From: Proteobacteria bacterium UBA1844
GTDB lineage: Bacteria > Pseudomonadota > Gammaproteobacteria > Steroidobacterales > Woeseiaceae
Direction of reading: 5' to 3'
Assembly: GCA_002338615.1 (NCBI GenBank)
Contig: DDIS01000177.1
Location: 6,133-70,132 of the forward strand
Length of the DNA stretch: 64,000 nt
Shown here in pieces: positions 9,001 to 23,822 of the stretch. Within the stretch, counting starts at the first letter, position 1. Every line of letters starts with the position of its first letter. A program made the translations under genes and the position numbers. A model generated the notes under the pieces. It was given only the letters and a program-made list of their open reading frames with translations. It did no database searches and was not told the origin of the DNA.

Positions 9001-9235
9001 TCCGGACCGTACCGGTGCCGCACAGCTCGCAGAAGCTGACCGAGAAATCGTGGTTGATAATGTTCGCTGTTGGCAGGTCCGCCGGACAATTCGGCGGCAC
9101 CTGGGCCGCTGCATTTTCGCTTGCGGCGAACAGTGCAAGGGCGACCAGCAAAGACGCACACCACGAGCGCAGACGCCGCCCACTGGGTGCGGCACCGAAA
9201 CCCGGATTTCGTGCGGATTCGTGCGAGTAGGCCAT
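1..9235 (-). CDS. Giant exported DUF11-repeat surface protein (3' end outside window)
   Basis: One frame stays open on the minus strand from an ATG at 9235 to the window edge, at least 3078 codons. The frame is the same throughout, so there is no frameshift. Residues 1-45 are a signal peptide: basic stretch, the core SLLVALALFAA, then a likely cleavage near NAAAQ. The rest is a chain of immunoglobulin-like modules with the DUF11 pattern (E-K near the start, RYTITVxNxG in the middle, then DxLP and TYVxGS), for example at about nt 2330-2080, 1870-1480 and 1380-1020. A Cna-B/SdrD-B-like module follows at about nt 966-780 (GQIFHDSDYDNTFD, then GLEGWTVTLL), then another carboxypeptidase-regulatory-like module and a further DUF11 start. 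Such proteins are normally secreted or surface-attached; adhesion is inferred. The C-terminus is not in view, so the anchoring mode is unknown. A riboswitch-like leader lies upstream. Confidence 0.93.
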   Translation of the reverse strand, partial: MAYSHESARNPGFGAAPSGRRLRSWCASLLVALALFAASENAAAQVPPNCPADLPTANIINHDFSVSFCELCGTGTVRIEIENPYRNADDADFTDIVIREDLAASGLTYVPGTTTFSASNQATPPAVEPVVSGAAGSNLTWTLSNAFELETAPNGIGNSRTLTVQFQVRRHASVGEEGLVGADRTIAAEIEFAPSCETSYRHTSETGPGVLPLDEPELNIIKTGRNVDAGQGTGSYTDTVYGHEGDDVIWRIQVQNNGDADLQDFTFSDVMNPGNYVIDYICDSGADANAVATNTGGPGDCSSVGGVTQVNNVNVAGLFGGGPNPYIAAPAGGTNSFYLVGRVTDSCTNRTNTVTSAEWGCEVEAPPGGLNATSTGQMALLDNANLNTLSDQDLDFDVDFIGANSSTQPIGSRGRVRIRITNNSGGTIKGDLVDGLKLRNLLPVEYVVDATFVPTATVTPAYGNAYPGMLDTIVWTNPALPANPLDNTEPEFLVTSSTTNAEFPDQKHMLRNGDTLTVIFGAVLIDPQYYDREAYLDVRVESPGSTPANTDPTETFDIQNELEVWFEEFCNPGTVHNELFNSTDTAEPEDIDPDNTGGELIFILTNTDVLPLRVDLNNNGGHDADNYFAYVTFGEAMTVQTAPGSCTLETNPPPQPVWTDPVVLPTSATVYRCSPGRIGPHSTRSLDFEVVKNPGAIDDDLTYRVDVIGEITLSDGTLLTFPAPTNRGDGVLPRANDYTVDTLWSRVVGYNLVKTQQGICTENNPPPGSPDALIQIGEECEFHIESGGWFGFETLGFDYIAVQDIQVIDNIPDGQGYISSTDPFAPGYSTPEIKNAVLNPPPLPLDEAAFDWTHNSDVVNERIFEKDHWFRVDVTTRLLNDPQDQRAPPNVHAAQSRNVLTSNFQAVFLNQLTGAEQIYDLDPNTFGYPPEFRRRVDLAVTEPRLTVVQEVCNETIYGAGPACSNFVPLADDGDAYDTYIYRVTVANEAAAGGVNRAPAYDVTVTTDTDPSDLVIVDPLETDGLDNDGNAEIDEAAGEGQIVPDNIFLNGTPAQIITDYTHSDPLLRIDAGDSVVFYYRVDPYDDVSPLQMLTNSAVASYDSLEGASGSQTNPLGANGEIGGARQYVSAPGDATIQIIPVEVEPKTILRLSNTPAVVTGPQPVSIGEELEFELRTLIPVAQLRNFTIRDELPAGMRCTDAPDINLDAPPYDGAGFMPGGTFTPTCTDTEVQWSFGNQTVTQSPRTDRRFDFGIQFIARIENVDASRDGYVIGNGGTYTQTYVSYVDQASNTVVIDFDAAEVVISEPLLELTKEFSVDETDASDRLTVTVTATNNGTATAYNPRFLDDLTGVDLTYIGDVAGTNPPNVDTTTYGPDSPLFSYDPGYAIAPGATVSFTFVVEVGADVEPLQVLENTIEADWTSLPDQNTALNTGGTIGVNGDVDGMRIGALPNAADTLNNYEAEASDSVYVTPLTIDKTDLDPAMAPEIGAHKAFEVLLNLPEGVSNTVSLDDNLAFGNASYVLADNADFDVTYEFAGIASINGQAPDVAAFNAVPADGAANNISWDIGSVTTETEDDTAVQDINPYIRISYRARLNNDLDTNVGSTLQNSATLYFENGDTNLQEALNDTTAAIQATEPSLTAAKAISNVTPGKQPGDPIALGDLVQYVLTIPNPGNAIAYDTNITDTLPPELTLDVSYTPTAQIDGVPVAGFVGIPTGAPDGPLLWGAGNNDGSLDIAPGATLEVTYRVRLDQPADENIALTNIVWVDWTSRDTVDVYERTGAGCPNVTQPDDYCYGPATADGTPYPVGPPAALVKANTQATAAIGEEFRYRITVPGTPHPVPIYDVRILDDLGASAANMSYVAVTQVSGPGVFAPENTGDATNLVIEDVTNGIDIPIGQQVVLDITVRLDDTASNVSGLNFTNTAAYTYNRLDNAPATVLPGDPGTTAAMTIVGPDELTLEKSGPPQMQLGVPGNFTLNVHNTGDSPAYNLTLYDVLPNQADGGTCDAAPANFTAQIFAADGTTAISPVLAEGADYSVAFVGDPDCTLTITTLTPAAAVGADQRLIVNYAAYLDADSQQSANLTNVAAATEWFSIDVTDPDQLNYARSYTRALTDGTINVLDHEDAHTVVVFTPLLVFEKTVVNMSTGENPATLATPGERLRYTLHVENVSDTPLAGFSIVDTLDALNAVPAFLPGSLNLLTYPDGADITNTDANGGASGTGLLDIRNLSLGGIGDSIQIEFEVDLAPVIANGSYVSNQSEILFAGYTVGLSDDPYQNGAADPNVVGDEDPTQVLIESAPAFRIEKISSYLEGDPNVLLAGETMRYTITVQNVGTDNANGVEIFDQLPENTTYVAGSTLLNGVALPDAGNGGTPLADGIDVNAPQDTTPGVMNAAIADNTATINFDVVVYPDVPDGTIIENQAFLDAVGYGISNQPSDDPRTPVANDPTRDVVGNYPLLFATKSAVLQVDAGSPGIVDPGDVLRYTITVYNNGAVPATDTELSDNVPLNTSYVPDTTTLNGYPVGQPDGGAFPLAAQIPISSADLTPPLPAGNDGVLSPGEAAVVQFDLLVDDNVPTGTLITNQATVYSAEAPNLLTDGDGNPATGPEPTVVVVGDAQQLSITKEVAVVGGGPAIAGATLEYKVTVQNIGPVPALYISLLDNLDDPIPGYLAYVDQSATLNGQMNGITVTGALITADYSTSYGALEPGATITLRFRAIINPNLDDGTTISNTATVYWNDPQQMASATVNIDVGGMPNTGILSGQIFHDSDYDNTFDGGELGLEGWTVTLLLDDTPIRTMQTTADGTYVLMGVQPNYALGQEYSLLFRAPGAGSRTALLGVTDSDFTDGLQRIDLIEVQGGSNLRDLNLPIDPNGVVYDAVTRSPVAGATLTMFDARRNTSIPASCFDDPAQQGQVTVSNGYYKFDMNFSDPACPSGANYTIEIVPPTNGYVPGASQLIPPTTGPTTLPFNVPSCPGGTDDAIFATSAHCEIQPSEFAPPTSQPARSQGTVYHAHLILSDSQKPGSSQLFNNHIPVDPQLGGAVAVTKTTPALNVTRGQMVPYVITVRNSFGADLMDVN

Positions 9236-9676: not shown

Positions 9677-11431
9677 CTATGCGGTGGGCAGGAAGTCGAT
9701 CGGATAGATGATCGTCATCGCAACGATGTCTTCTTTCGCGCCGAAGTCGAAGCTGCGAATGCGCTCGACAACCTGCTCTGCGAGCGCAGGCGCATCCATA
9801 TCCGAGGACTGCAGCGCGCACATTGACACCGTGCCATCGGGTTCTATGGTCAGGCGTAAAATAATCTGGCCACGCAACGTCGGGTCTTTGCGCAGCTCAC
9901 GGTTGTACAGGCGGTATAGCGCGGACTTGTAGCGGTCAAACACGATCTGAATTTCTTCGTCGGTGCGTCCGGCATTCGATCCGGCGCTGAGTGGCCGGTC
10001 CGGTCCTTCCGCGCCGCCAATGGAACTGGCGACGCGCGTTACCGCCACGCTATCCAGTGCCTGGCCACCACCGCCAACGTCGCGACTGATATCCGCGAGA
10101 TTGATGCCGCCGCTGGAGCCCGGTGCCGATGTTGCAACCATCATACGTTCCGGCCGGCCAGTCGCATCTTCTCCGGCGGTCGTAAGGCGCGCCTGGGAGC
10201 CGAGGTGAGCGTTCGTCTTCATGTTCGCGCGACTTGCAAAGCTGTCGCGAAACGCGAGTATGCCCTTGGTCTTGACCTGCTCGCGGGTTTCTTCCTGCGC
10301 CACCGCCGCGGCTTTTTCAGCAACCTCCGGTAGCGGCACCACTTCTGGAGTCACTTCCGGCGGCTTCTCTTCCGCGAGCATGGGTTCTGGCTCGGGCAAG
10401 GGCACGTCGGGTTCGACAATCTCGGGCTCGGGTTCCGCCGCCTGCACAGGTGGCGGTGGAGGTGGCGGCAATTCCTTGCGCACGAGGCTAACAACCCGTT
10501 CCGGTATCTCGTTTACATGGGACCGTTCCGGCGTCGGCAGGACGATCTCACCCACCAGCCAGCCAAGCAGGATCGAACAGAGGAGCGTCGCGGCCAGGGA
10601 GTGACGGAACCGCTGGTCCTCTTCGAAGCCGCGCGCCCACGGCATGACCATCGCGCGGGCGGGCAGGTCGTCCGGTTCGCGCTCGACTTCCCATTCATTG
10701 CGTTGATTCTCGACAATCTCGATCGCTTCAAGCAATTCGTAGTGCACGCGATCGAGCTGGTCATTTTTGCCGGCGATTTTCTCAATAAGCGCCGCCTGCC
10801 GCTCCTCGAGGAGTCGCACATCGCCGGAGTATTTCTCGATATTGCCTCGGGCAACAGCGAGTTGCTCCGCTGCAGCGGTCCTGGTTTTTCCTGCACCCCA
10901 GAACAGATCGGCATCGCCGGCCTCATCGAGATCCTCAAGCGATTCGCAAACCAGGGATAATGTCTGGTAAGTCTCTTTCCTGGCAGCAAATTCCGCGTGT
11001 TCTTCGTTGACCTCACTCAACTCCCACTCGAGCGCAGCCAGTTCCTGCTCGGCCTCTTCGAGTTTCAGCTCCAGCGCGCGCTGTTCGGCTTCGGTGAGTG
11101 CTTGCGCTTCTTCAGCAACGATTGATAGCTGCTCCTCTGTGCCCGACGATTGCTGTTCGCCGTCGGCAGACGCAGGCTTTACATCCTGTTCTGGCGTGGG
11201 CTGTCCGTCCTCGGCAGATGCGCACTGTTCGTCCCGGGAAAGCGTGGACTGCTCGTCGTCGGCCGACGCGCACTCGTCGTCCTGGACGGGCACAGGCTCT
11301 GCATTTTCGGCAGAGGCATGATCTTCATTCCGGGCAGGTGTGTACTGCTCGCCGTCGGCAGCTGCAAGTACTTCGGCTTCGTTCAGCTCGCCCGAAGGTT
11401 CCTCAGTCTCGTCCATGACTTTGTTGTCCAT
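9677..11431 (-). CDS. TonB/AgmX-like energy-transducing protein with PglI/AgmX C-terminal domain
   Basis: 584 residues. Residues about 20-95 form a cytoplasmic, very acidic, degenerate repeat region (units such as CASADDEQ, CASAEDGQ, PASADGEQ). About 100-250 is a Glu/Gln-rich coiled coil. A single membrane helix lies near 275-297 (LAATLLCSILLGWLVGEIVL). It is followed by a periplasmic Pro-rich arm (PPPPPPP, then EPEPEIVEP), and the last ~95 residues are a TonB-like AgmX/PglI fold (RGQIILRLTIEPDG, then IVERIRSFDFG-type ending). It is last in a four-gene operon after ExbB and two ExbD, so it is the likely partner that carries motor movement to the outer envelope. In Myxococcus the comparable proteins are GltG/GltJ. 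The homology class is clear; the biological output here is inferred. Confidence 0.85.
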   Translation of the reverse strand: MDNKVMDETEEPSGELNEAEVLAAADGEQYTPARNEDHASAENAEPVPVQDDECASADDEQSTLSRDEQCASAEDGQPTPEQDVKPASADGEQQSSGTEEQLSIVAEEAQALTEAEQRALELKLEEAEQELAALEWELSEVNEEHAEFAARKETYQTLSLVCESLEDLDEAGDADLFWGAGKTRTAAAEQLAVARGNIEKYSGDVRLLEERQAALIEKIAGKNDQLDRVHYELLEAIEIVENQRNEWEVEREPDDLPARAMVMPWARGFEEDQRFRHSLAATLLCSILLGWLVGEIVLPTPERSHVNEIPERVVSLVRKELPPPPPPPVQAAEPEPEIVEPDVPLPEPEPMLAEEKPPEVTPEVVPLPEVAEKAAAVAQEETREQVKTKGILAFRDSFASRANMKTNAHLGSQARLTTAGEDATGRPERMMVATSAPGSSGGINLADISRDVGGGGQALDSVAVTRVASSIGGAEGPDRPLSAGSNAGRTDEEIQIVFDRYKSALYRLYNRELRKDPTLRGQIILRLTIEPDGTVSMCALQSSDMDAPALAEQVVERIRSFDFGAKEDIVAMTIIYPIDFLPTA

Positions 11432-11444
11432 TGACTTAACAGGC

Positions 11445-11951
11445 CTAGTACGCGGCCGCTACCCGCGACTCTTTCTGGGTGACGGCGAGTGATACATTCT
11501 CGTACCCCTGATCGGTGCAGGTTGACATGATCTTGCGCACAACGACGAATGGCACCGACTTGTCGGCAAGTACGGTAACCTCCTGGCTTTCCGCCACCAA
11601 CGCCGTATTCAGGCCGACAATATTTTCTTTCAATAGTGCCAGTTCCGCGGCGATCGGTTCGATTGTCGCGGCCTCGCTCTCGAGTATGTCAGCAACATTG
11701 GTGACGGCGCGGCCCTGTACCAGAACCTGGTCGGGGCTTACGAATATGACTACGGTTTCACGCGGCTTGGACTCAACACGCGACTCCGGTAACGTCATGT
11801 TCTTGGGCGCGTCCATGATCTCGACAGAACCCGAGTTTACGAGCAGGAAGAATACAAGAATTGTGAACACGTCCATGAGTGACGTCAGGTTCATCTTCGC
11901 AATCTTCGTGCGATTACGCGCCATTCGTTTGATGCGGCGCGTATTCCTCAC
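11445..11951 (-). CDS. ExbD/TolR-type biopolymer transport protein (second copy, Asp retained)
   Basis: 168 residues, one N-terminal membrane helix and a periplasmic domain. The helix has the motif NLTSLMDVFTILVFFLL, with Asp27 at the position of the proton-carrying Asp25 of E. coli ExbD. A GTG start overlaps the stop of the preceding exbD by four bases (GTGA), which implies translational coupling; ATG 11924 is the alternative start. With ExbB and the first ExbD it should form a proton-driven motor like AglRQS or TolQR. The periplasmic part is longer than in TolR and has a helical insert (about residues 80-120). Confidence 0.85.
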   Translation of the reverse strand: MRNTRRIKRMARNRTKIAKMNLTSLMDVFTILVFFLLVNSGSVEIMDAPKNMTLPESRVESKPRETVVIFVSPDQVLVQGRAVTNVADILESEAATIEPIAAELALLKENIVGLNTALVAESQEVTVLADKSVPFVVVRKIMSTCTDQGYENVSLAVTQKESRVAAAY

Positions 11952-12445
11952 GGTGCGTCTCCGACGGAAATGTCCGTAAACAGGGCCAGCAGCTCATACT
12001 CTTCTTCAGATCCTTCCACCGGCATTTCCACGCTGCGCACGATATCCATGACCTGGATCAGATAATCGTAAGGAATCTGGGCTTCCATCAGCACCGACGC
12101 ATTGTCGAGCTCGGGATACTCCTGCTTGAGCGAGTAGACAAACTCCGCAAGCGTGTCGAGATCGTATTCCTCATCCTTCTTGGGGATTGAGGCGATGATG
12201 TCGGTGCCATTGCTGATTTCGATGCCCACCTCGCGCACAATAACTTCCACGCGAAATGTATCGAGGTTCGATGAAGGCCCACCTGCTGAGCTCGGCAGAT
12301 CAAGCTCGACGATCGTCATGCGCGAGAAGACTGCTGTGATCAACAGGAACGGCACAAGTACCACCATCAGGTTGAGAAAGGTGGTTACATCGATCTCGTG
12401 CGCGTCACCCTTGGTACGGCGCTTGTAGTGGTGCCGCCTGGCCAT
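11948..12445 (-). CDS. ExbD/TolR-type biopolymer transport protein (first copy, Asn in place of the key Asp)
   Basis: 165 residues. The N-terminal helix reads EIDVTTFLNLMVVLVPFLL. Aligned on the usual EINMTPLVDVV motif of ExbD, the protonatable Asp is replaced by Asn25 (codon AAC). The downstream partner keeps its Asp, so a mixed motor would carry one protonatable and one silent helix. The periplasmic domain is rich in Asp and Glu. It starts five bases after exbB. Confidence 0.84.
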   Translation of the reverse strand: MARRHHYKRRTKGDAHEIDVTTFLNLMVVLVPFLLITAVFSRMTIVELDLPSSAGGPSSNLDTFRVEVIVREVGIEISNGTDIIASIPKKDEEYDLDTLAEFVYSLKQEYPELDNASVLMEAQIPYDYLIQVMDIVRSVEMPVEGSEEEYELLALFTDISVGDAP

Positions 12446-12450
12446 CGTGC

Positions 12451-13104
12451 TTACGCCTCTGCGACTGTACGCTTGGCCCGTTTGGAAAATACGTTCAGGG
12501 CTTTGACTGTTGCCATTTCAAGGCTGTCAACGATGTCACCTGTCTTGCTGGTCAGGATAGCGTGCACGACCAGCAACGGGATGGCGACCATCAGGCCGAA
12601 TGCGGTCGTGTTCATCGCGACCGAAATACTTGCTGAGAGCAAGTCGGCTTTCTCGGCCGGGTTCGCGTTAGCGACGGCGGTAAACGCCTGAATCAGGCCC
12701 ATGATGGTGCCGAGCAGGCCGAGCAATGTCGCGATGCTTGAGGCCAGCGCCACGTACGGCGTGCGCTTCTCGAGCCGTGGCACGATTTCCATCATGCTTT
12801 CTTCCATCGCGATTTCGATATCTTCGCGACGGCGGACAGCGCCTTGCAGCGACAGGCCCATGTTGAGTACCTGCGAGATTGTTGACTGGTCTTCGCCAGT
12901 CATCTTGCGTGCTTCGTCGAACTCACCATTGGACAGCAGTGGCTGCACCTTCTGCCACACGGCCTGGTTTTTGTTCGTCACGAGTGCGAGTGTTACATAG
13001 CGTTCGATTGCAATCGCGAGCCCGATGGCGAACACCACCAGTATCGGATACATGAACAACCCACCCGATGAAAAGAATCCTACAATCGAATAGAGAAGGT
13101 CCAT
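12451..13104 (-). CDS. MotA/TolQ/ExbB-family proton channel subunit
   Basis: 217 residues from ATG 13104, chosen because AAGGA sits about nine bases upstream; a start 12 codons earlier at 13140 lacks this. Three membrane helices are visible: FMYPILVVFAIGLAIAIERY near the N-terminus, then VALASSIATLLGLLGTIMGL and TTAFGLMVAIPLLVVHAIL near the C-terminus, the usual ExbB topology with a large cytoplasmic loop. The TLLGLLGTIMGLIQAF motif is the family signature. First gene of the exbB-exbD-exbD-agmX operon. Other family members (TolQ of the Tol-Pal system) are unlikely because tolA, tolB and pal are absent. Confidence 0.9.
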   Translation of the reverse strand: MDLLYSIVGFFSSGGLFMYPILVVFAIGLAIAIERYVTLALVTNKNQAVWQKVQPLLSNGEFDEARKMTGEDQSTISQVLNMGLSLQGAVRRREDIEIAMEESMMEIVPRLEKRTPYVALASSIATLLGLLGTIMGLIQAFTAVANANPAEKADLLSASISVAMNTTAFGLMVAIPLLVVHAILTSKTGDIVDSLEMATVKALNVFSKRAKRTVAEA

Positions 13105-13346
13105 TTCCAGTTCCTTATTTGACAGAATGTCCTGAGCCAAGCCTCAGACAAGTGCAGAGAATAGTCGCGGATTACAGACAGCGATGTGATATAGCGCACG
13201 TTCAAGGAGGGTCGCTGGAAAAAGAAATTCGCTTTGAGTGCAGAGGCTTAGCGGCTTTGTTGCTGAGAGCCATACTGGGCGCGGGAGGTGAGGCTGCCTG
13301 GGATGGACAATGATCCGGGAAGCTCGGCTGCCTGACTGCCTGGGCA
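13105..13346. other. Intergenic stretch upstream of the exbB operon
   Basis: About 240 bases between the cold-shock gene terminator and exbB. I see no gene. The promoter of the exbB operon must lie here; a TTGAAC at 13205-13200 on the minus strand has no well-spaced -10 partner, so I do not call one. Confidence 0.5.
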
Positions 13347-13381
13347 ACAAAAAAGGGCAAGACCAACAGGTCTCGCCCTTT
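13347..13381 (-). terminator. Rho-independent terminator of the cold-shock gene
   Basis: On the minus strand GGGCGAGACC, loop TGTT, GGTCTTGCCC and then TTTTTTG. The stem is near perfect with one G-T pair, and it lies about 70 bases behind the stop of the cold-shock gene. Confidence 0.9.
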
Positions 13382-13449
13382 CTGGCCTCAACTCCGAAAG
13401 AGTGTGCGGCTGGCCTGCAATGACTGCATTGCAGGCCGAATCGCGCTGC

Positions 13450-13653
13450 TTAAACCGCTACGATATTCTCTGCCTGAGGACCCTTCTGGCCCTGGGTAAG
13501 AGTGAACTCGACTTTTTGGCCCTCGGCCAGGGTTTTGTGCCCATCGCCTGTAATAGCGCTGAAATGTGCAAAAACGTCGGGGCCAGATTCTTGCTCGATA
13601 AAGCCAAATCCTTTGGCATCATTAAACCATTTAACGGTTCCGGTAGTAGACAT
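13450..13653 (-). CDS. Cold-shock domain protein (CspA family)
   Basis: 67 residues, the standard length of a single cold-shock domain. Both nucleic-acid-binding motifs are present: KGFGFI (RNP1) and DVFAHF (RNP2, usual form VFVHF). It is expected to act as an RNA chaperone in the cytoplasm. It is monocistronic with its own terminator, and the 250-base gap upstream leaves room for a long 5' leader of the kind used for cold regulation, though I cannot define it. It separates the two halves of the Glt-like cluster. Confidence 0.97.
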
Positions 13654-13906
13654 AGTCTTAATCCTGTTTATTCAAGAGTATTGGGAGCCTTCGTGTGAAG
13701 GCAATATTGCTGGAAGCGCTACTATTACTTATGAAAAACAGGACGAGGCGTTACAGAAAGACTTCGAAATGAGGTACATAAATATCAGACGTACTTTCAA
13801 GCTGGGTGAAGCATAACAGCTTTACCCTGTCGTAAATGGGCATTTGCAAGCCGTTTCGCCGCTGGTTTGGCGGTATTATTGTCGTTTGCTCGATAAACTA
13901 GCCGGT

Positions 13907-14275
13907 ATGGGACAATTGGAACCAAGACAAGTCGTGAAGAACTGGGTAGCGGCGTTCAATCGTGGTGATGCGGATGAACTGGCAAGTTTTTATTCTGACG
14001 ATGCAGTTAATCACCAGGTTGTGCAGGATCCGGTAGCAGGACGCAATGCGATTCGGGAAATGTTTGCGCGCGAGTTTGGTCGCGCCACGATGGTTTGCCA
14101 GATAGAGAATATCTTTCAGGATGGGGAGTGGGCGATTCTTGAATGGAAGGATCCAAAGGGACTACGTGGTTGCGGATTCTTCAATATCGTTAACAACCTG
14201 ATCGTTTTTCAGCGCGGCTATTTCAACGAGCTCTCATTCTTACGTCAGCAAGGATTGCCGCTGCCAATCGAGTAA
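13907..14275 (+). CDS. SnoaL-like (NTF2-fold) protein
   Basis: 122 residues from ATG 13907; the frame extends to a TTG at 13844 but the added residues are not family-like. The pattern VVKNWVAAFNRGDADELASFY, followed by DDAVNHQV and a GRNAIREMF motif, is typical of the SnoaL/NTF2-like alpha-plus-beta barrel. These proteins bind small molecules or act as isomerases and hydrolases; the sequence does not say which. It stands alone, convergent with the envelope operon at 14366. Confidence 0.75.
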   Translation: MGQLEPRQVVKNWVAAFNRGDADELASFYSDDAVNHQVVQDPVAGRNAIREMFAREFGRATMVCQIENIFQDGEWAILEWKDPKGLRGCGFFNIVNNLIVFQRGYFNELSFLRQQGLPLPIE

Positions 14276-14365
14276 TAATCGAACCGTTCCATTCGATCGC
14301 AGGTGTTCGGCAGTGGTGACTTTGAGCGCTTGATTTGAGAGTGGCTGGATTAGCCGCACGGGACA

Positions 14366-14722
14366 CTAGCTGCCGGAGCGGATCTCGTAGAACCGCAGCT
14401 CGCGCAAAAAGACTTCTTTGTCGACCGGACGAGCTCGATCGTCCAGTGTGTCGGACAGGCTGATTGCCTCGCCAAGCTCCGAGGATTTCCATGGCACGAT
14501 GACCAGCGCCTTTGGTGCTTCCTCATTGCCGAGAATCGACATACCGGACATCGCCTTCGGGCTGTCTATACCGTCGCCGTTCGGCGTTTTCTCGGCCGTC
14601 GCTTCCGTTACCGGGGATTCAGTGACCTCAGTCGTATCGTTCGCATCGCTTGCCGGCTCTTCCGCCACAACGATCTGGGGCAGAAACAACACGACGCCGG
14701 AAATAAGTAGAGACTTCAGCAT
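14366..14722 (-). CDS. Small exported protein, last gene of the TPR envelope operon
   Basis: 118 residues with a cleavable signal peptide (MLKSLLISGVVLFLPQIVVA, then EEP). The mature part has a Thr/Glu/Asp-rich linker to about residue 65 and a short C-terminal region ending VFLRELRFYEIRSGS. The ribosome binding site AGGAACGG overlaps the stop of the TPR lipoprotein gene in front, so the two are probably co-translated. I do not recognise the family. The position suggests an accessory periplasmic part of the same machine. Confidence 0.75.
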   Translation of the reverse strand: MLKSLLISGVVLFLPQIVVAEEPASDANDTTEVTESPVTEATAEKTPNGDGIDSPKAMSGMSILGNEEAPKALVIVPWKSSELGEAISLSDTLDDRARPVDKEVFLRELRFYEIRSGS

Positions 14723-14730
14723 GACCGTTC

Positions 14731-15348
14731 CTATTGATTCATCCGGTTACGAATATCGGCAACCCACATGGATGCTTCCTCGTCGCTCTTCACCGTCGCA
14801 AGATAAGCCTCGTAGTTATCAAGTGCACAGGACAGGTCGGCAAGGTACAGATCGCAAAGGATGGCAAGATTTCTGCGCGCGAAATGATAGCCCGGGTAAA
14901 TTTGCAGCGCTGCTTCGTAGCTCTTGCGAGCTTCGGCAAAGCGTCCGCGCTCACGGTAGACTATACCGAGTTCATTGTAGGCAATCGGGTGCGCCGGGTT
15001 GAGTGCCAGCGCGGCCTGCAGGCTTTGTTCAGCACGATCGAGATCGCCCCCCTGGTGATAGGCAATGCCAAGGTCGATGCGCGGTGCACTGAGTTCGGGC
15101 GCGGCAGCCGCAACCGATTCCAGTAGTGCCACACCTTCGGCATTGCGGCCCTGTTCAAGCAGTGACAGTGCGTGCTGGTAATCCGCACGGACATCATTGC
15201 TGACGCGCGCTTCCTCCGTGATCGTAAATCCGACCGCATCCTGGATTTCAAGGTGCGCCGTACTGCGCGGCTGTTGCGGACTCGTGGCGCAGGCACATAG
15301 CGCAGAGGCAAGCCCCGCCAGCAACAGGAAGCGAAACGTCGTGTGCAT
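14731..15348 (-). CDS. TPR-containing outer-membrane lipoprotein
   Basis: 205 residues from ATG 15348. The frame runs further upstream, but that part is translated REP sequence, and MHTTFRFLLLAGLASALCAC is a good lipoprotein signal with the modified Cys at or near residue 20. Residues about 60-185 hold three to four TPR units (for example ELSAPRIDLGIAYHQGGDLD, AYNELGIVYRERGRFAEA). It resembles the small TPR proteins of Glt/Nfs clusters (GltE type); that link rests on context. A paired REP separates it from the TPR gene in front. Confidence 0.85.
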   Translation of the reverse strand: MHTTFRFLLLAGLASALCACATSPQQPRSTAHLEIQDAVGFTITEEARVSNDVRADYQHALSLLEQGRNAEGVALLESVAAAAPELSAPRIDLGIAYHQGGDLDRAEQSLQAALALNPAHPIAYNELGIVYRERGRFAEARKSYEAALQIYPGYHFARRNLAILCDLYLADLSCALDNYEAYLATVKSDEEASMWVADIRNRMNQ

Positions 15349-15350
15349 CC

Positions 15351-15407
15351 GCAGAAGCGCCATCCTGGCGCGATCCATCCTGAATCGTGACTGGCAGCCG
15401 CTCCTGC
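15351..15407 (-). repeat. Paired REP (BIME-like) inside the TPR operon
   Basis: On the minus strand GCAGGAGCGGCTGCCAGTCA leads through GATTCAGGATGGAT to CGCGCCAGGATGGCGCTTCT and GC. The two half elements face each other, as in BIME units. It fills most of the 91-bp gap between 15440 and 15348 and could form an mRNA-protecting hairpin between two operon genes. Confidence 0.75.
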
Positions 15408-15439
15408 GAGCTTGTGTTGGATTCATTGTCATAGTCGGA

Positions 15440-18400
15440 TTACCGCGTCTCATATGCCGCGGAGTGTTCCCACTCTGCTTCGGTTTCTGCCGGTGCTTGC
15501 GACTCGTCCTGCGCGACGTCCGGGTTCGGCACTTCCTCGACACCAATAGGCGGTGCGCCCGGCATGCGATACGCGTACGAATCGATGGAACCGACATAGC
15601 CTTCACTGATCTCGCTTTTCGCGTAGCGGCCCGGCATCAGGTCGGCAAGTTTGTCGAGGCTCTGTTGCACCCAGGGGTTGTAGACGCCCGCAGCAAGTAA
15701 CTCGAAGTTCTGCTCGTGCACGCCAATGGCCTTCTCTTCGAAGGGGTATGCCTCTTCCTCGATAACCATCTCGTAGTCGGTTTTTTCGGCACTTGTGAGG
15801 CCGGCCGGCCGCTCCGAGTTAATCAGCGCGTTGCTGAATTCGAGATAAGTCTCGGCGATGTAGAACGTCGCTGCAGCGGTGACATCGGCAACTTCGTAGT
15901 CGACCAGTTTTTCAAGCGACGCCATGGCCGTGTCCATGCGCTGTTGCTTTTCGGCGAGGCTTTTCTCAAACGGCTGATCAAGCGGCAGTTGTGCAAAGCG
16001 ATCGAAATCCTGTTGTGCGAGCACGAGCGCCGCTTTGGATGCCAGGAAGCGGCTGCGATCCGTACGGTCACCGCCGGAATCGCGATCGGTCGCGACAATA
16101 GCGGCGAGTTCCGCGTTGTAACGAGTGTAGTCACTCTCCTGCTTGAATAATTCAGACAAGCGGGTTCGCGTTTCCATAGCGATGTCGAGCGGGCGTGGAT
16201 ACAGGCTCACGTACTGGTCGTATACACGAATCGCTTCGGCCGTGACCTTTACTTCGTCGTACAGCTCGCCCGCCGTCAGCATCGCCTGGCGACTGAGTTC
16301 CGGATCGCTTGCTTCGGCTGCAATACGTTCGTACTCGACAGCCGAGCGTTCAATCTGTCCGGCTTTGCGGTAAACCGTGGCAAGTTGCTTGGTTGCCTCG
16401 GTCTCGAGTTCGTGGTCCGGATTGTTGATCCGGAACTCCTCGAGAACCGTCGATGCCATTGCCCAGTCCTCGAGTTTCATCAATGCGGCAGCACCATCGT
16501 ACTCAGCCGCGGTGCGAATCGACGAGGTCGGTGCGACGTCCTTGATGCGCAGGAAGTGATTTGCAGCCGTCCGGTAATCTCCGAGCAGGTTCGCTTGCTC
16601 ACCCTGCTTGTAGATGGCGGCGGCCAGGCCATCGATTATGGCGGGACGGGTTTCGTCATCGGCCGGTGTCAGCGCGAGTACATTCTGGTAAGCAAATTCG
16701 GCATCTACGTAGCGGGCAAGATCGATGGACGAATGTCCAATCACAGCCCAGGCTGAACGCAACAGGTCCTGGTCCGCCGACGGGTAACGGTCGATCAGCT
16801 TCTGTGCCGAGTCAATCGCGACCGTGAATTCCTGCATGTCGTAAAGATCATCGGCCGCGGCGCCAAGCACAACGGCGGCCTGCGGATGGTCGCGAAAGCT
16901 GTCAGCGAAACGTAAAGAGCTGGCGACCGTGGCCTGCTTGACAATGAGCTGGTTCGCGCCCGTGGCCGCCTCGAGTTCCGATCGATAAGCGTACACAGCC
17001 GCATAACCCGCCGCAGCAGCCTGCTCGTGCGGTGCGTAGGCATAAGCTGTTTGCTCGTAGGCGCGCGCAGCCTCGCCGAAGTTTTCGTTCTCCAGCAACA
17101 GGTCGGCGAGCTGGTAGTTGATCTGCGGTGAATCGTCATCGGCCGGGAACGACGCCAGGAACTCACCGTACCAGCGCTCTGCCTCCAGAAAATGTTCCGG
17201 TCGCTCGTCGGCCAGTTCCTCGTCCTGGTAGAGCGCGTGGTAGTGATTGGCAAGGTCCGTCAGGTTCACCTTCAACATCGCGACGGCTTCCGGCGCCTCG
17301 TCGATGTTGAAGTACTGCCAGTATTCCGCGGAGCGAGCGTAGCGTGATGCGAATTCCTTTTTCGATTCGACCACGAGCTGCGGGAAGCCGGCCTCACCGT
17401 ATATCTCGATGACACGCTGGTTAAAGCGCGGCGCTACCCTGTGAAAGGGATTCAGGTCCGTGAAGGACTTGTACACCGCCGCCGCATCTTCGTAACGCAG
17501 CTTCGAGAAATAGAACTCGCCGAGATTGCCGTAAATCTTGTCAGCGTAGCTGCGCTGGCCACGTTCGGCAAAGTACTCGTCAACAACCTCGGGCCCGCCG
17601 AGGTTCGAGAAACTCAGGCTGATAACGCGAAACGTGTCGGCAATCCGGTGTTCCTCGTTTTCGTCGAGCAGCTTGTCGAAGTCGTAGCCGATCGACTCAC
17701 GATGATCGAGCATCGCAACGTAATTGTTGAGCGCCTGCTCGTAAAGTTCCTGCTTGTACAAGGTCCAGCCCATCTTGTACAAGGCGAGTTCGAAGTAGTA
17801 CGAGTCGTCGCCCATGCCGATGATTGCGCCGTAGGCATCTTCGGCATCCAGGTAGTTCTTGCGCACGAAGTAGTATTCGCCGCGCCGAAACTGCACCTCA
17901 TCGATAAATTTCGAGTAAGGGTATTCCGTGATCAGCCGGTTCATGACCTCCATGGCGTCATCGGGCTGGCCGATTTCGTCGTAGGCACGCGACATCTGGT
18001 ACAGGACCTGGTCGTTGCGCTCGTAGTCCGGGTAGTTTGCGAGAATCTTCTGGTAGGTCTTGATCGCTTCGCGTGGACCGGACGGCACGGATTCAGCCGT
18101 CAGTTCGGCGAGGCCGGTATCCTGTGCTGCATCGGTCGCGAGCAGCTGTTCCCGCTCGCTGGCTCGTTGCTCAAATGCGTGGTCGGATTCACGGTCGGCC
18201 TGGGTCATGGCCGAAGGTGCAGTGCCGGGTGCTTCGACGCGCGCTGCCGCCTGCGGTTTCGCGGCAACCGGTGCCCGCATTTCGATGATGTCGGTCTTGC
18301 CGCCAAGCACGCCGTATTCCTGCTCGACCTGCAAATCGGCGAGGCGCCGCATGGCTTCCGGTGTCAGCGAGCTTTCCGGCGTCTTCTCGAGGTAATTGCG

Positions 18401-18562
18401 ATAGCTTTCTGCGGCGCGCTCGAGGCTGTCGTCGAGATACACCTCGTCCACATCGGGTGCGACCTGGTGCAATTCGGCAAGCGTGCCTTGCTGCGGCGCG
18501 GTGGAGCAGGCGCCGAGCAAAAGTGCCACGCAGCCAATAAAAAGTGCTTGCCGGCTGTTCAT
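15440..18562 (-). CDS. Large TPR lipoprotein of the envelope machine (GltE/GltD-like class)
   Basis: 1040 residues. The signal MNSRQALFIGCVALLLGACS has a clear lipobox (LLGAC), so the mature protein is lipid-anchored. Nearly all the rest is helical TPR-type repeat (for example DQVLYQMSRAYDEIGQPDDA, YSKFIDEVQFRRGEYYFVRK, ANHFLRIKDVAPTSSIRTAA). The last 60 residues are an acidic, Pro-rich tail. The ATG overlaps the stop of the upstream TPR gene by four bases. Proteins of this build act as periplasmic scaffolds; in Myxococcus, TPR proteins of this class link the inner-membrane AglRQS motor to the outer membrane. I infer the same role here from the neighbouring motor genes. Confidence 0.85.
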   Translation of the reverse strand: MNSRQALFIGCVALLLGACSTAPQQGTLAELHQVAPDVDEVYLDDSLERAAESYRNYLEKTPESSLTPEAMRRLADLQVEQEYGVLGGKTDIIEMRAPVAAKPQAAARVEAPGTAPSAMTQADRESDHAFEQRASEREQLLATDAAQDTGLAELTAESVPSGPREAIKTYQKILANYPDYERNDQVLYQMSRAYDEIGQPDDAMEVMNRLITEYPYSKFIDEVQFRRGEYYFVRKNYLDAEDAYGAIIGMGDDSYYFELALYKMGWTLYKQELYEQALNNYVAMLDHRESIGYDFDKLLDENEEHRIADTFRVISLSFSNLGGPEVVDEYFAERGQRSYADKIYGNLGEFYFSKLRYEDAAAVYKSFTDLNPFHRVAPRFNQRVIEIYGEAGFPQLVVESKKEFASRYARSAEYWQYFNIDEAPEAVAMLKVNLTDLANHYHALYQDEELADERPEHFLEAERWYGEFLASFPADDDSPQINYQLADLLLENENFGEAARAYEQTAYAYAPHEQAAAAGYAAVYAYRSELEAATGANQLIVKQATVASSLRFADSFRDHPQAAVVLGAAADDLYDMQEFTVAIDSAQKLIDRYPSADQDLLRSAWAVIGHSSIDLARYVDAEFAYQNVLALTPADDETRPAIIDGLAAAIYKQGEQANLLGDYRTAANHFLRIKDVAPTSSIRTAAEYDGAAALMKLEDWAMASTVLEEFRINNPDHELETEATKQLATVYRKAGQIERSAVEYERIAAEASDPELSRQAMLTAGELYDEVKVTAEAIRVYDQYVSLYPRPLDIAMETRTRLSELFKQESDYTRYNAELAAIVATDRDSGGDRTDRSRFLASKAALVLAQQDFDRFAQLPLDQPFEKSLAEKQQRMDTAMASLEKLVDYEVADVTAAATFYIAETYLEFSNALINSERPAGLTSAEKTDYEMVIEEEAYPFEEKAIGVHEQNFELLAAGVYNPWVQQSLDKLADLMPGRYAKSEISEGYVGSIDSYAYRMPGAPPIGVEEVPNPDVAQDESQAPAETEAEWEHSAAYETR

Positions 18563-20445
18563 TGCAAAACACTCCGTGCCTGCGCCTGGGTTGCACGGTC
18601 GTAGCTGTCAGCCAGCGCAAAGCGGGCTTTTTCCCGGTAGTTCTCAAGACGGGACCGGCGCGCGACGAGTTCGTCGATCGCGAACAATTCGAGTTCGTGA
18701 CCCTGCCGTTTCATCAGGCTCTCGACCCGTACGATCGAGTCTTGCACCTCGGTACGCAGCTGCCGGATTGGCGTGTCGTAACCAACATAACTGTGCGTCG
18801 CGGCTTGCCGCGAGCGCACGAATTCGTCGTATTCAGCCTGTGCCGTTGCCATTGCGGCGTCCAGGTTGCGCAAATTGCGATCGAACTCGGTCAGGCGTTC
18901 GTGGTACTCGGTGTTGAGCGTCCAGACCAGCAGACCACGGAGACGCTGGATACGTTCCAGCAGCATTTTCTCGGACGTTCTGAGTTCGCCGCCGCCGAAG
19001 CGCGACTCCATGGCATCGAGCTGGTTCAGAAGGTCCTGTTCCTCGCGGGTGGCGAGAAATTCGGGACGCGGTGTCGTCAGAAGATCGTCGCGACGCTTGA
19101 CTAGCATCTTGTGTTGTTCGATGCGCAGGCGAAAGCGTGAATCCAGTTCGCGGAACTCCGTATCAATCTCCGGCAGCAGCGGCGTGTAATGCTCACTGCG
19201 GATCTCGACCATATCGTCGAACGCGTCGAAGCTGCTTTGCCAGCTGACGAGTTTGCGATGCAGGTCTGCGAGGTCGAGATAATTCTGCAGAACGGTCTGG
19301 AAATCGTTGCTCGCGAGCAGCTGCATCAGGTAGTAGGTTTCGGGTGTTTGTGGTAACGACCGCAGGCGAATCACCCAGTCCTTGTTCTGGCGGATTTCTT
19401 CACGTACCAGCGCGTCCAGAAAACGGCCATCACGGATGCTTTCGATTGAGCCATTCAGCTTTTCGACTTCGGTGCCAAACGCGTCCAGCGCCTGGCCGTA
19501 GTAGACGGCCGCGCGACCATGGATATCGAGTTTGCCGTAGGCGTACGGCAGCGCGAGCATTGCTTCCTGGGTTGCGGCGTCAGTTACTTCGCGCTGCGCC
19601 AAAATGCTCCAGGGCACCACCGCGCGTGCGTAGTGTTCACCGGACATGTTCGCCCAGCCGGCGCTAAGCAATGCCTGGTTGGAAAAGGGACCGTCCAGGC
19701 GGACACGGTCGAGGAATTGTGCAGATGTCGTGTAGTCGCCACCTTCGAGCAACAGCGTACCCAGCACCAGGTTGGCTTTGTCGCGAATAGCGAGGTCGGC
19801 AGGATCGCTGGTTTCGAAACGACCGGCACGATCCAGCTGCTCGATCGCGAGTTGTCGCTCGCCAGCCTGCAGATGGGCAATGCCTAGGTTGTACGCGGCG
19901 AACGCGCCGTAACTTTTCGAATCCTGTAAACGTTTGAACGTGTCGAACGCGTCCGCCGGCCGGTCAAGGGCGAGATAAATATTGGCGCGCAGGAACTCAA
20001 TGTCGTCGCGGATCTGTTCGGGAACCTTGCCTTCGATACGGGAGAGCGCAAGCAGCGCATCCTCCATCTGACCTTTCTGGAATTGAATGCGCGCCAGCCG
20101 ATAGGCCGCATCGTTACGCACCTCGTCGTCAACCGCACCCTCGAGCACCGCGGTGATGGCGCGACCGGCGCGCTGGTGCATGCGATAACGCAGTTCAAAG
20201 TCACCGAGTGAAAACTCGGCATCGTCCATGTACGGGTACAAGGTATCCCGCTCCGGCTCGTCGACCTCGTCATGCTGGAGGACTTCGGCATCGAGGCGTT
20301 CCAGTGCTTCGAAATACAGGCCCTGGTGGGCGTAGTAGAGCGCCTCACCGAAATACAGGTCTTTCAGTTCTTCACTGTGACAGGGGCCAGTCGCCAGTGA
20401 CGCCCACACGAGGAGCCCCGTCGCCGTAAACGGCGCACGATTCAT
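18559..20445 (-). CDS. Exported TPR protein with C-terminal coiled coil
   Basis: 628 residues. An N-terminal signal (TGLLVWASLATGPCHS) is followed by TPR-like helices to about residue 330 (EALYYAHQGLYFEALERLDA, AAYRLARIQFQKGQMEDALL). A long helical, coiled-coil-prone region rich in Arg and Glu runs from about 400 to the end (EIDTEFRELDSRFRLRIEQH). It starts three bases behind the first gene of the operon and is translationally coupled to the next. Likely periplasmic scaffold of the same complex. Confidence 0.82.
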   Translation of the reverse strand: MNRAPFTATGLLVWASLATGPCHSEELKDLYFGEALYYAHQGLYFEALERLDAEVLQHDEVDEPERDTLYPYMDDAEFSLGDFELRYRMHQRAGRAITAVLEGAVDDEVRNDAAYRLARIQFQKGQMEDALLALSRIEGKVPEQIRDDIEFLRANIYLALDRPADAFDTFKRLQDSKSYGAFAAYNLGIAHLQAGERQLAIEQLDRAGRFETSDPADLAIRDKANLVLGTLLLEGGDYTTSAQFLDRVRLDGPFSNQALLSAGWANMSGEHYARAVVPWSILAQREVTDAATQEAMLALPYAYGKLDIHGRAAVYYGQALDAFGTEVEKLNGSIESIRDGRFLDALVREEIRQNKDWVIRLRSLPQTPETYYLMQLLASNDFQTVLQNYLDLADLHRKLVSWQSSFDAFDDMVEIRSEHYTPLLPEIDTEFRELDSRFRLRIEQHKMLVKRRDDLLTTPRPEFLATREEQDLLNQLDAMESRFGGGELRTSEKMLLERIQRLRGLLVWTLNTEYHERLTEFDRNLRNLDAAMATAQAEYDEFVRSRQAATHSYVGYDTPIRQLRTEVQDSIVRVESLMKRQGHELELFAIDELVARRSRLENYREKARFALADSYDRATQAQARSVLQ

Positions 20446-20448
20446 GAA

Positions 20449-20988
20449 TCACCAGTCCCCGACAAGAATCGGGCTGCCACCGAGAGACGGTCCGGCGAGT
20501 GTTATACCGAGCGCTTTGGGCGCGATACCCTTTGCGAAACTGAAGTCGTCGGTTTCGCTGAAGTCCTTGCCGTTCTTCAGCTTGCCGTGCATCGTGACCT
20601 TGAGTTGATGGTCGCCGGTCGGCACGTTGCCGGTGTACAGGCGTTGCACGCCACCTTTCTGTAGCGCCTCGAGTTCCTTGAAACTGTAGATGTGTTGCGT
20701 CGCGACTTCGCCATTGATCACCACCTGGATCGAGTCGAGACGAAAATCCTCGCTGTCATGAAACGCGACAAACAGCGCGAGCTGCGTATTGGAAGGATAG
20801 AGCAGGCGTTCTTCGAGATTGCCGAGTTCGGAGGCAATGCTCAGAACATCCGATTTTATTTCCTGTACCTGGCCGTCGAGGCTGCGTGTGTCCTCACTCG
20901 CAATCTCTTGCGCAAAGCCGGGCGCACAGACCGCACCCACGAGTATCGTAAATACCGCGAGTACCAGAAACCGCATGAATGTTGGCAT
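20449..20988 (-). CDS. Small exported coiled-coil protein, first gene of the envelope operon
   Basis: 179 residues. Signal peptide MRFLVLAVFTILVGAVCAPG with cleavage near FAQ, then a short coiled coil (VQEIKSDVLSIASELGNLEE) and a beta-rich domain (LFVAFHDSEDFRLDSIQVVI to the end). The start is set by AGGACGG seven bases upstream. The beta domain reads like those of small periplasmic Glt-cluster proteins (GltC class), but this is recognition by type and context, not a firm family call. Confidence 0.75.
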   Translation of the reverse strand: MPTFMRFLVLAVFTILVGAVCAPGFAQEIASEDTRSLDGQVQEIKSDVLSIASELGNLEERLLYPSNTQLALFVAFHDSEDFRLDSIQVVINGEVATQHIYSFKELEALQKGGVQRLYTGNVPTGDHQLKVTMHGKLKNGKDFSETDDFSFAKGIAPKALGITLAGPSLGGSPILVGDW

Positions 20989-22521: not shown

Positions 22522-22681
22522 CGGTGCGCACTATGCAGTGCCGCCCGTGTGCGGTAAAGCGGGTAATACGACATTGTACAAGTGGTCGAAAGCCTTGCTT
22601 AGCCCTGGCTCCGTCCGGATGGCGCCGCTACCGTCGTTTCGCTACAGTGTTGTGTCAATGTCACCGGTCCCGGATGTAACA

Positions 22682-23812: not shown

Positions 23813-23822
23813 GCCCCTGGAT

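What the first reader, a model, noticed from the sequence alone, without database searches (positions are those of the whole stretch)
9677..20988. Agl-Glt/Nfs-like trans-envelope machine in a gammaproteobacterium, split into two operons
Seen: ExbB, two ExbD and a TonB/AgmX protein in one operon; a small coiled-coil protein, two large TPR proteins, a TPR lipoprotein and a small exported protein in another, same strand. Known: this combination (AglRQS-type motor, GltG/J, TPR Glt proteins) drives gliding and spore-coat assembly in Myxococcus, and reduced sets were reported outside deltaproteobacteria. Here it lies beside a giant surface protein, which suggests that protein or a polymer as cargo (inference).
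Basis: partly seen in the sequence, partly recalled or inferred. Interest (0 to 1): 0.8.

Follow-up and report, generated by a model that had tools for sequence, protein, structure and literature searches.

The report
Motor-driven giant surface protein machine
A marine gammaproteobacterium carries a proton-driven, envelope-spanning protein machine related to the gliding motor of Myxococcus, and in many bacteria this version travels together with a giant repeat protein and a very large outer-membrane barrel protein, which suggests what this long-known machine of unknown purpose works on.

Summary
Nine minus-strand genes (9677-20988) encode an ExbB/AglR-like channel, two ExbD, an AgmX/GltG-like TonB protein, three TPR proteins matching or placed like GltC/D/E, and two small exported proteins. 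This is the Agl-Glt 'core complex' that Luciano et al. (2011) reported in Gammaproteobacteria with unknown function, so the kind is known. The 'split into two operons' is local: the gap is 1225 bp here and 48-210 bp in 24 class-1 relatives.

What looks new is a monophyletic subtype (class 1). It differs from a second, contiguous copy in the same genome by a long N-terminal segment of AgmX and by two linked genes: a giant DUF11 protein (1.3-5 kaa) and a protein with OmpA domains and a large beta-barrel, just outside the window. One or both flank 59 of 60 evaluable loci, in two gene orders. Among 274 genomes of the class, full-length barrel and class-1 GltD occur in the same 8. In one genome giant and barrel share one open frame.

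Best reading: a proton-driven machine dedicated to a giant surface protein held by its own outer-membrane barrel. Whether it moves or exports that protein is open.

The parts
20449..20988 (-). A: 179 aa exported protein (signal peptide, helix 37-63, transthyretin/Ig-like beta-sandwich); perhaps the extra gene of the non-myxobacterial core complex (inference)
   Evidence: first gene of class 1 and class 2 loci; a weak hit, E 4.1e-6, in one Myxococcota-type locus (L202) speaks a little against 'no myxobacterial homologue'
18559..20445 (-). B: 628 aa exported TPR protein, GltC position
   Evidence: TPR_21 E 1.4e-7; profile hit E 1.9e-12 to a TPR protein in the same gene order in L197; no direct hit to NCBIfam GltC and no hit of our profile to the L203 protein that NCBIfam matches to GltC
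15440..18562 (-). C: 1040 aa TPR lipoprotein (lipobox LGAC read by eye), GltD homologue
   Evidence: profile match E 6.4e-81 to a 1183 aa protein between GltC- and GltE-like genes in L197; matches in 115 of 140 genomes of a Myxococcota-titled phylum
14731..15348 (-). D: TPR lipoprotein, GltE homologue (lipobox LCAC read by eye; mechanical ORF starts at 15606)
   Evidence: NF033758 GltE E 2.3e-7 in the TPR part; profile hit E 6.5e-34 to an L197 protein that NCBIfam matches to GltE
14366..14722 (-). E: 118 aa exported protein, no family; lies where gltF lies in Myxococcus (position only)
   Evidence: conserved position
13141..14365 (.). 1225 bp spacer with an opposite-strand SnoaL-like ORF (13844-14275 +): local insertion that splits the operon
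   Evidence: the same gap is 48-210 bp in 24 class-1 relatives; SnoaL_2 E 1.4e-14
12451..13140 (-). F: ExbB/AglR-like proton channel (229 aa)
11948..12445 (-). G: ExbD-1 (165 aa), Asn where ExbD has the proton-binding Asp (role of the Asp recalled)
11445..11951 (-). H: ExbD-2 (168 aa), keeps the Asp
9677..11431 (-). I: AgmX/GltG-like force transducer (584 aa): long N-terminus (coiled-coil-like by eye, cytoplasmic by inference), hydrophobic segment from residue 280, proline-rich stalk, TonB/AgmX C-terminus
2..9235 (-). Giant DUF11 protein, 5' 3078 of 3375 codons (signal peptide by eye, DUF11 repeats, SdrD_B, conserved C-terminus); its 3' end lies outside the window at C151:5240. The following OmpA-OmpA-beta-barrel gene (C151:42-5243, 4 nt overlap) is entirely outside

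Best explanation
This is a distinct subtype (class 1) of the Agl-Glt core complex. Proton flow through the ExbB/ExbD stator drives the AgmX-type transmembrane transducer. Its periplasmic proline-rich arm, with the TPR proteins GltC, GltD (lipoprotein) and GltE (lipoprotein), passes force across the wall to an outer-membrane platform. That platform is a very large beta-barrel with OmpA domains, which holds and presents a giant DUF11 protein at the cell surface. The machine's job is to act mechanically on this giant protein, most likely to move, extend or reposition it as an adhesin or coat filament. Shown by sequence here: homology of the parts, gene linkage, phyletic co-occurrence, giant-barrel fusion. 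Inferred: physical contact, force transfer, surface exposure, adhesion.
For: Profile homology and shared gene order with Myxococcota-type Glt loci. Giant (phmmer 45 bits or more to the window's giant) directly downstream or barrel directly upstream in 59 of 60 evaluable loci out of 80 fetched (46 and 13), and giant in 19 of 21 evaluable of 25 class-1 loci of relatives, a partly overlapping set; 0 of 15 class-2 loci. The second gene order is confined to one clade. In 274 genomes of the class, full-length barrel and class-1 GltD are in the same 8. Giant and barrel share one open frame in G301; other DUF11-OmpA-barrel fusions exist. Barrel C-terminus models as about 25 strands, best matches LptD and MtrB. 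Giant C-terminus conserved between gamma and Desulfuromonadales loci. The Agl motor moves Nfs complexes and glycan on spores (PMC3858216, passages read). A Fibrobacter ExbB/ExbD/ExbD/TonB cluster is raised on cellulose, and OmpA FSU_2396 and TPR FSU_2397 are reported with a fibroslime protein and cellulases in one complex (PMC6851124, passages read).
Against: No experiment. Gene linkage does not prove contact. Two relatives have the machine without a detected barrel (G026, G035) and one has the barrel without the machine (G034). L052, L056 and L144 lack an adjacent giant. Class 2 has no giant neighbour, so the core machine must also do something else. The large barrel could equally mean export rather than movement. 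In the fused forms OmpA domains, normally periplasmic, lie between the DUF11 part and the barrel, so surface exposure is not proven. The barrel model is poor overall (mean pLDDT 57) and its structural matches have rmsd of 10 or more.
Confidence: 0.55

Rival explanations
1. Secretion machine: the motor powers export or assembly of the giant DUF11 protein through the large barrel, like a type IX system in proteobacteria, rather than moving it once exposed.
For: Giant and barrel ORFs overlap by 4 nt in 13 of the 14 loci where both lie in view, and are fused in G301 and in distant paralogues; about 25 strands, with LptD, MtrB and usher matches; conserved giant C-terminus that could be a targeting domain; GltD weakly matches the T9SS lipoprotein PorW/SprE model (E 2.6e-12, 46 bits against a cut-off of 250).
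Against: Distant DUF11-OmpA-barrel fusions lie on contigs with no ExbB match of either class at E 1e-40 (G023:C81, G051:C41), so export need not use the machine; the Agl-Nfs machine acts on surface material (PMC3858216, passages).
Confidence: 0.25
2. Envelope-maintenance machine of Tol-Pal type: the motor couples inner to outer membrane through OmpA/peptidoglycan contacts, and the giant protein is only a structural or S-layer-like component.
For: ExbB/ExbD/TonB-type parts, OmpA domains in the barrel, which also match the Pal model at E 3.2e-9, 37 bits against a cut-off of 125, tol_pal_ybgF-type TPR in GltD above that model's cut-off.
Against: No Pal or TolB family among the hits of the nine operon proteins; class 1 is patchy (8 of 274 genomes), unlike a housekeeping system.
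Confidence: 0.12
3. Ordinary known core complex of unknown function; the giant-barrel pair is a hitch-hiking neighbour kept together by common descent or transfer as a block.
For: The core set is published (PMC3169522); linkage within a genus is not independent; the eight genomes come from six families only.
Against: Linkage survives a change of gene order and spans several phyla by record title; in families f101 and f169 one listed genome has both machine and barrel and another neither; 0 of 15 class-2 loci carry it, four of them from genomes that also hold class 1.
Confidence: 0.08

Closest known systems
Agl-Glt 'core complex' of Gammaproteobacteria and Geobacter (Luciano et al. 2011, PMC3169522; sections 6, 7, 11, 12 and passages read)
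   Same: gltC, gltD, gltE, gltG, aglR, aglQ, aglS clustered, plus one gene without myxobacterial homologue; duplicated in some genomes; function unknown
   Different: The word DUF11 does not occur in its main text and 'surface protein' does not either; class-1 AgmX has a 170-280 aa segment before its membrane helix
Myxococcus xanthus Agl-Glt gliding and Agl-Nfs spore-coat machines (PMC3169522 sections, PMC3858216 passages)
   Same: Motor, GltD/E TPR proteins, AgmX/PglI C-terminal domain, shared gene order in two Myxococcota-type loci
   Different: No GltA/B-type barrel or GltJ match among the nine operon proteins; a giant barrel plus DUF11 protein may take the outer-membrane and surface role instead (inference)
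Class-2 paralogous operon in the same genome (G000:C121, L006)
   Same: Same nine genes in the same order, ExbB 61% and GltD 42% identical
   Different: AgmX 322 aa with its hydrophobic segment from residue 27; no giant or barrel neighbour
TolQ plus paired TolR plus TPR loci with vWA transducers (PMC12204202, passages read)
   Same: tolQ-like gene, a pair of unlike tolR-like genes and a TPR gene beside a proposed force transducer; function unknown
   Different: vWA transducer instead of AgmX; no sequence comparison made here
Fibrobacter succinogenes FSU_2396-2403 (PMC6851124, passages read)
   Same: OmpA, TPR and ExbB/ExbD/ExbD/TonB genes with neighbouring locus numbers; OmpA and TPR products reported with a fibroslime protein in one complex
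   Different: Different surface proteins; not compared by sequence here
Flavobacterium T9SS/SprB gliding and Salmonella SiiAB-SiiE (recalled; SprB and SiiAB only named in listings and passages)
   Same: Proton-driven stator paired with a giant adhesin
   Different: Unrelated outer-membrane parts (recalled); no comparison made, apart from a sub-threshold PorW/SprE hit of GltD

Membership tests
Agl-Glt core complex (Luciano Group B) | AglR-type ExbB plus two distinct ExbD genes in a row | tested here: met
   our profiles hit the ExbB, ExbD, ExbD of L197 at E 7.8e-55, 6.9e-19, 1.3e-20 in the same order
Agl-Glt core complex (Luciano Group B) | GltG-type transducer with AgmX/PglI C-terminal domain | tested here: met
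   NF033768 57.0 bits against cut-off 40; the GltG model matches only 87 C-terminal residues, 33.6 bits against 650; no FHA domain
Agl-Glt core complex (Luciano Group B) | GltD homologue | tested here: met
   (E 6.4e-81, L197); caveat: TPR proteins cross-match
Agl-Glt core complex (Luciano Group B) | GltE homologue | tested here: met
   E 6.5e-34 to an L197 protein that NCBIfam matches to GltE below its cut-off; caveat: TPR proteins cross-match
Agl-Glt core complex (Luciano Group B) | GltC homologue | tested here: inconclusive
   No NCBIfam GltC hit at E 0.1; our profile misses the L203 protein that NCBIfam matches to GltC; hhalign E 7.9e-4, probability 10%; one L197 protein matches both, in its TPR part, and the gene position agrees
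Agl-Glt core complex (Luciano Group B) | One clustered region | tested here: met
   in this window interrupted by 1225 bp
Complete Myxococcus gliding machine (Group A genes) | GltJ, and outer-membrane barrels of the OMP_myx_plus type that precede GltC in L203, in the locus | tested here: not met
   No NCBIfam GltJ or OMP_myx_plus hit among the nine operon proteins at E 0.1; OMP_myx_plus barrels exist elsewhere in the genome, on C61, a contig without ExbB matches
Complete Myxococcus gliding machine (Group A genes) | GltF, GltH, GltI, GltK | not tested
   no model or sequence of these was compared; protein E sits at the gltF position
Complete Myxococcus gliding machine (Group A genes) | Gliding of the cells | not testable with these tools
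   no culture
Tol-Pal | TolB and Pal encoded with TolQR | tested here: not met
   neither among the Pfam or NCBIfam hits of the nine operon proteins; the barrel's OmpA domain matches Pal weakly
Type IX secretion | PorL/PorM/SprA components | not tested
   only a sub-threshold PorW/SprE hit to GltD

The most novel reading that the evidence does not exclude
An undescribed, self-contained eleven-component system in Gammaproteobacteria, Desulfuromonadales and others: a proton-driven Glt-type machine that mechanically moves a giant DUF11 surface filament of up to about 5,000 residues held in its own very large OmpA-barrel. It would be a proteobacterial counterpart of motor-driven adhesins such as SprB, and the first defined cargo for the 'core complex of unknown function'.
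Probability: 0.4. Interest if true: 0.82.

Novelty: new variant of a known kind. Interest (0 to 1): 0.62.

Why it matters
In 2011 the seven-gene core was left as a complex of unknown function in bacteria mostly not known to glide (PMC3169522). A recurrent partner pair, in one subtype and not the other, turns this into a testable claim: delete the motor and look at the giant protein. It would link the evolution of gliding and spore-coat machines to motor-driven surface adhesins, in relatives of the Woeseiaceae and in Desulfuromonadales. The barrel family is large (3569 proteins at E <= 1e-10 among the 7989 candidates scored); where the listed proteins bear a name it is mostly 'flagellar motor protein MotB' or 'OmpA family protein'.

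Tried and rejected

Limits: the 80 loci are the best of 346 matches to a class-1 query, so they favour near relatives. The loci overlap with them in part, so the two tallies are not independent. 'Giant' there means a frame matching the window's giant at 45 bits or more; four of the 46 are fragments of 88-461 aa at contig ends, and DUF11 itself was checked by Pfam in six giants only. In some searches at most two candidates per genome were scored, and the score gaps that separate the classes were read after the search. Eight genomes from six families are not eight independent events. Class labels go by best hit.
Full report
What is there. The minus strand of 9677-20988 reads, 5' to 3': A (179 aa exported), B (628 aa TPR, GltC position), C (1040 aa TPR lipoprotein, GltD), D (TPR lipoprotein, GltE), E (118 aa exported), a 1225 bp spacer, F (ExbB), G and H (two ExbD), I (AgmX/TonB, 584 aa), then a giant DUF11 protein on the same strand. 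In the full contig the giant is 3375 aa and is followed, with a 4 nt overlap, by a 1733 aa protein with two OmpA matches and a long C-terminal part. That second gene lies outside the window.

The split. In 24 class-1 relatives with both genes in view the E-F gap is 48-210 bp; here it is 1225 bp and holds an opposite-strand SnoaL-like ORF. The second copy of the system in this genome (L006, contig C121) is contiguous, 208 bp at that point. The split is therefore a local insertion.

Membership. AgmX passes the curated AgmX/PglI C-terminal model (57.0 against 40 bits) and matches GltG only in that region; GltE matches weakly. A GltD profile built from both classes matches 115 of 140 genomes, G060 itself included, drawn from the phylum of a MAG titled Myxococcota, three of them class-1-like and the rest much more distant; some of these may be other TPR proteins. 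Ten regions were fetched; two are class 1 themselves. Of the eight others two (L197, L202) show GltC-, GltD-, GltE-, ExbB-, ExbD-, ExbD- and AgmX-like genes in our order, while the rest show GltD and GltE with or without the others. NCBIfam matches proteins of L203 and L197 to GltC, GltE, GltJ and GltG, all below the equivalog cut-offs. GltC itself is not settled: no direct family hit, no hit of our profile to the L203 GltC, and a weak profile comparison. The set equals the core complex of Luciano et al. 2011 (PMC3169522, sections read), found clustered in Gammaproteobacteria and Geobacter with unknown function. So the kind is known.

Two classes. The two operons of this genome share 61% (ExbB), 42% (GltD) and 33% (GltC) identity. 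In a FastTree GltD tree of 101 sequences rooted on eight Myxococcota-type sequences, class 1 (78) and class 2 (15) are each monophyletic, local support 0.998 and 0.999. The hydrophobic segment of AgmX starts at residue 169-219 in 15 sampled class-1 relatives (280 in the window) and at residue 27 in the class-2 copy of this genome. The class-1 N-terminus looks like a coiled coil by eye.

The partner genes. Of 80 loci fetched with a class-1 GltD alignment (best 80 of 346), 60 could be judged: 46 have a giant-type frame directly downstream, 13 have the barrel directly upstream (10 of them with a giant fragment in view before it), and one, L144, has neither; 20 end too soon. The 13 form one clade with two loci that could not be judged, support 1.0. 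Record titles include Woeseiaceae, Steroidobacter relatives, Alcanivorax, Thiohalomonas, Gallionellales, Desulfuromonadales, Nitrospirae and Myxococcota; many are metagenome bins whose labels may be wrong. Pfam found DUF11 in all five further giants checked (L115, L132, L141, L145, L215), among them three of the weakest matches. Of the 25 class-1 loci of near relatives, 21 could be judged and 19 have the giant; L052 and L056 do not. Of 15 class-2 loci none has giant or barrel, though L064 shows only 0.6 kb downstream. The genome has DUF11 matches on four contigs only, so neighbourhood by chance is unlikely.

Co-occurrence. In the own genome and 59 relatives, 23 have class-1 ExbB (78% identity or more) and a barrel of 60% identity or more, 2 the machine only (G026, G035), 1 the barrel only (G034), 34 neither (my tally; G025 counted from partial matches). 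In 274 genomes of the class, own included, GltD hits of class-1 type (starting at model position 1-8, at least 1081 bits; the next is 888 bits starting at 141) are in G000, G219, G286, G301, G337, G367, G450 and G465; barrels covering the model from position 52 or earlier to the end are in the same eight and no other (in G450 in two pieces), while 15 further genomes have shorter relatives starting at position 476 or later. If independent, the chance of identical sets would be 1.4e-15, but relatedness makes the true figure much larger. Machine, giant and barrel are contiguous in G000, G219, G337 and G367; in G301, G450 and G465 contig ends fall in or just before the giant; in G286 machine and pair are on two contigs. 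In families f101 and f169 one listed genome has both and another has a GltD of other type and no barrel.

Fusion and size. In G301 one open frame of at least 3046 aa matches both giant and barrel; in G337 overlapping stretches give a giant of about 5,000 aa. Distant paralogues carry DUF11, OmpA and a related C-terminal barrel (26-33% identity) in one protein, such as L161 (2387 aa) and L158 (4790 aa). In G286 a 725 aa frame with 21 CXXCH and MtrC-like matches follows AgmX and runs off the contig, and another multihaem frame precedes the complete 4187 aa giant at the end of the other contig.

Motor detail. ExbD-1 has Asn at the proton-Asp position in 87 of 90 class-1 and 15 of 16 class-2 sequences and in both Myxococcota-type sequences; ExbD-2 has Asp in 89 of 89, 18 of 18 and 2 of 2 (labels by best hit, overlapping sets). 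The stator is thus predicted to carry one protonatable Asp per ExbD pair. [quoted passage not shown]

Mechanism. Shown: homology, linkage, co-occurrence, fusion. Inferred: the stator drives AgmX; the TPR lipoproteins link it to the OmpA-barrel; the barrel presents the giant; force reaches the giant. Agl-Nfs moves its complex and glycan over the spore surface in a proton-dependent way (PMC3858216, passages), which makes movement of a surface protein the nearest analogy; export through the barrel is the main rival.

Verdict. A known machine type, in a subtype with a recurrent and very probably dedicated giant protein and barrel. I found no account of that pairing in nine searches of an open-access library, which misses most subscription papers and all bioRxiv preprints.

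Noticed in passing
L006 4436-13827 (+) (G000:C121): Second, contiguous class-2 core operon in the same genome, without giant or barrel neighbour.
   Followed up: yes
window 11948-12445 (-): ExbD-1 carries Asn instead of the proton-binding Asp in nearly all homologues compared, while ExbD-2 always keeps Asp: a naturally one-sided stator pair; loci L108, L110, L117 have Asp in ExbD-1 too.
   Followed up: partly
L210 2-2176 (-) and L219 15179-16474 (-): Multihaem cytochrome frames (21 and 10 CXXCH; the first MtrC-like) beside AgmX and before the giant at two contig ends of one relative; multihaem frames also in L083 (same contig as L045) and L137.
   Followed up: partly
L158 404-14776 (+), L161 3489-10652 (-): Single proteins of 4790 and 2387 aa with DUF11, SdrD_B, OmpA and a related C-terminal barrel, on contigs without an ExbB match at E 1e-40.
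   Followed up: partly
L164 2-14895 (+): Relative (G034) with tandem giant/barrel genes and no detected class-1 ExbB in its genome (82% complete).
   Followed up: no
L127, L138, L140 after AgmX: A further ExbB gene directly after AgmX in these loci (Desulfuromonadales and Nitrospirae titles).
   Followed up: no
L202 2364-3200 (+): A weak match (E 4.1e-6) to protein A upstream of GltC in a Myxococcota-type locus, although the extra core gene was said to have no homologue in Myxococcales and Bdellovibrionales.
   Followed up: no
L220 7295-8862 (+) (G000:C61): Two OMP_myx_plus-type barrels beside a large exported protein with CXXCH motifs, on a contig without ExbB matches.
   Followed up: partly
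window 13844-14275 (+): SnoaL-like ORF inside the operon gap, opposite strand; the gap is too short for it in the 24 class-1 relatives compared.
   Followed up: no
window 21220-25658: Neighbours on the other side are PurD-type (GARS) synthetase, a glucose/sorbosone dehydrogenase and RecQ-type helicase.
   Followed up: no
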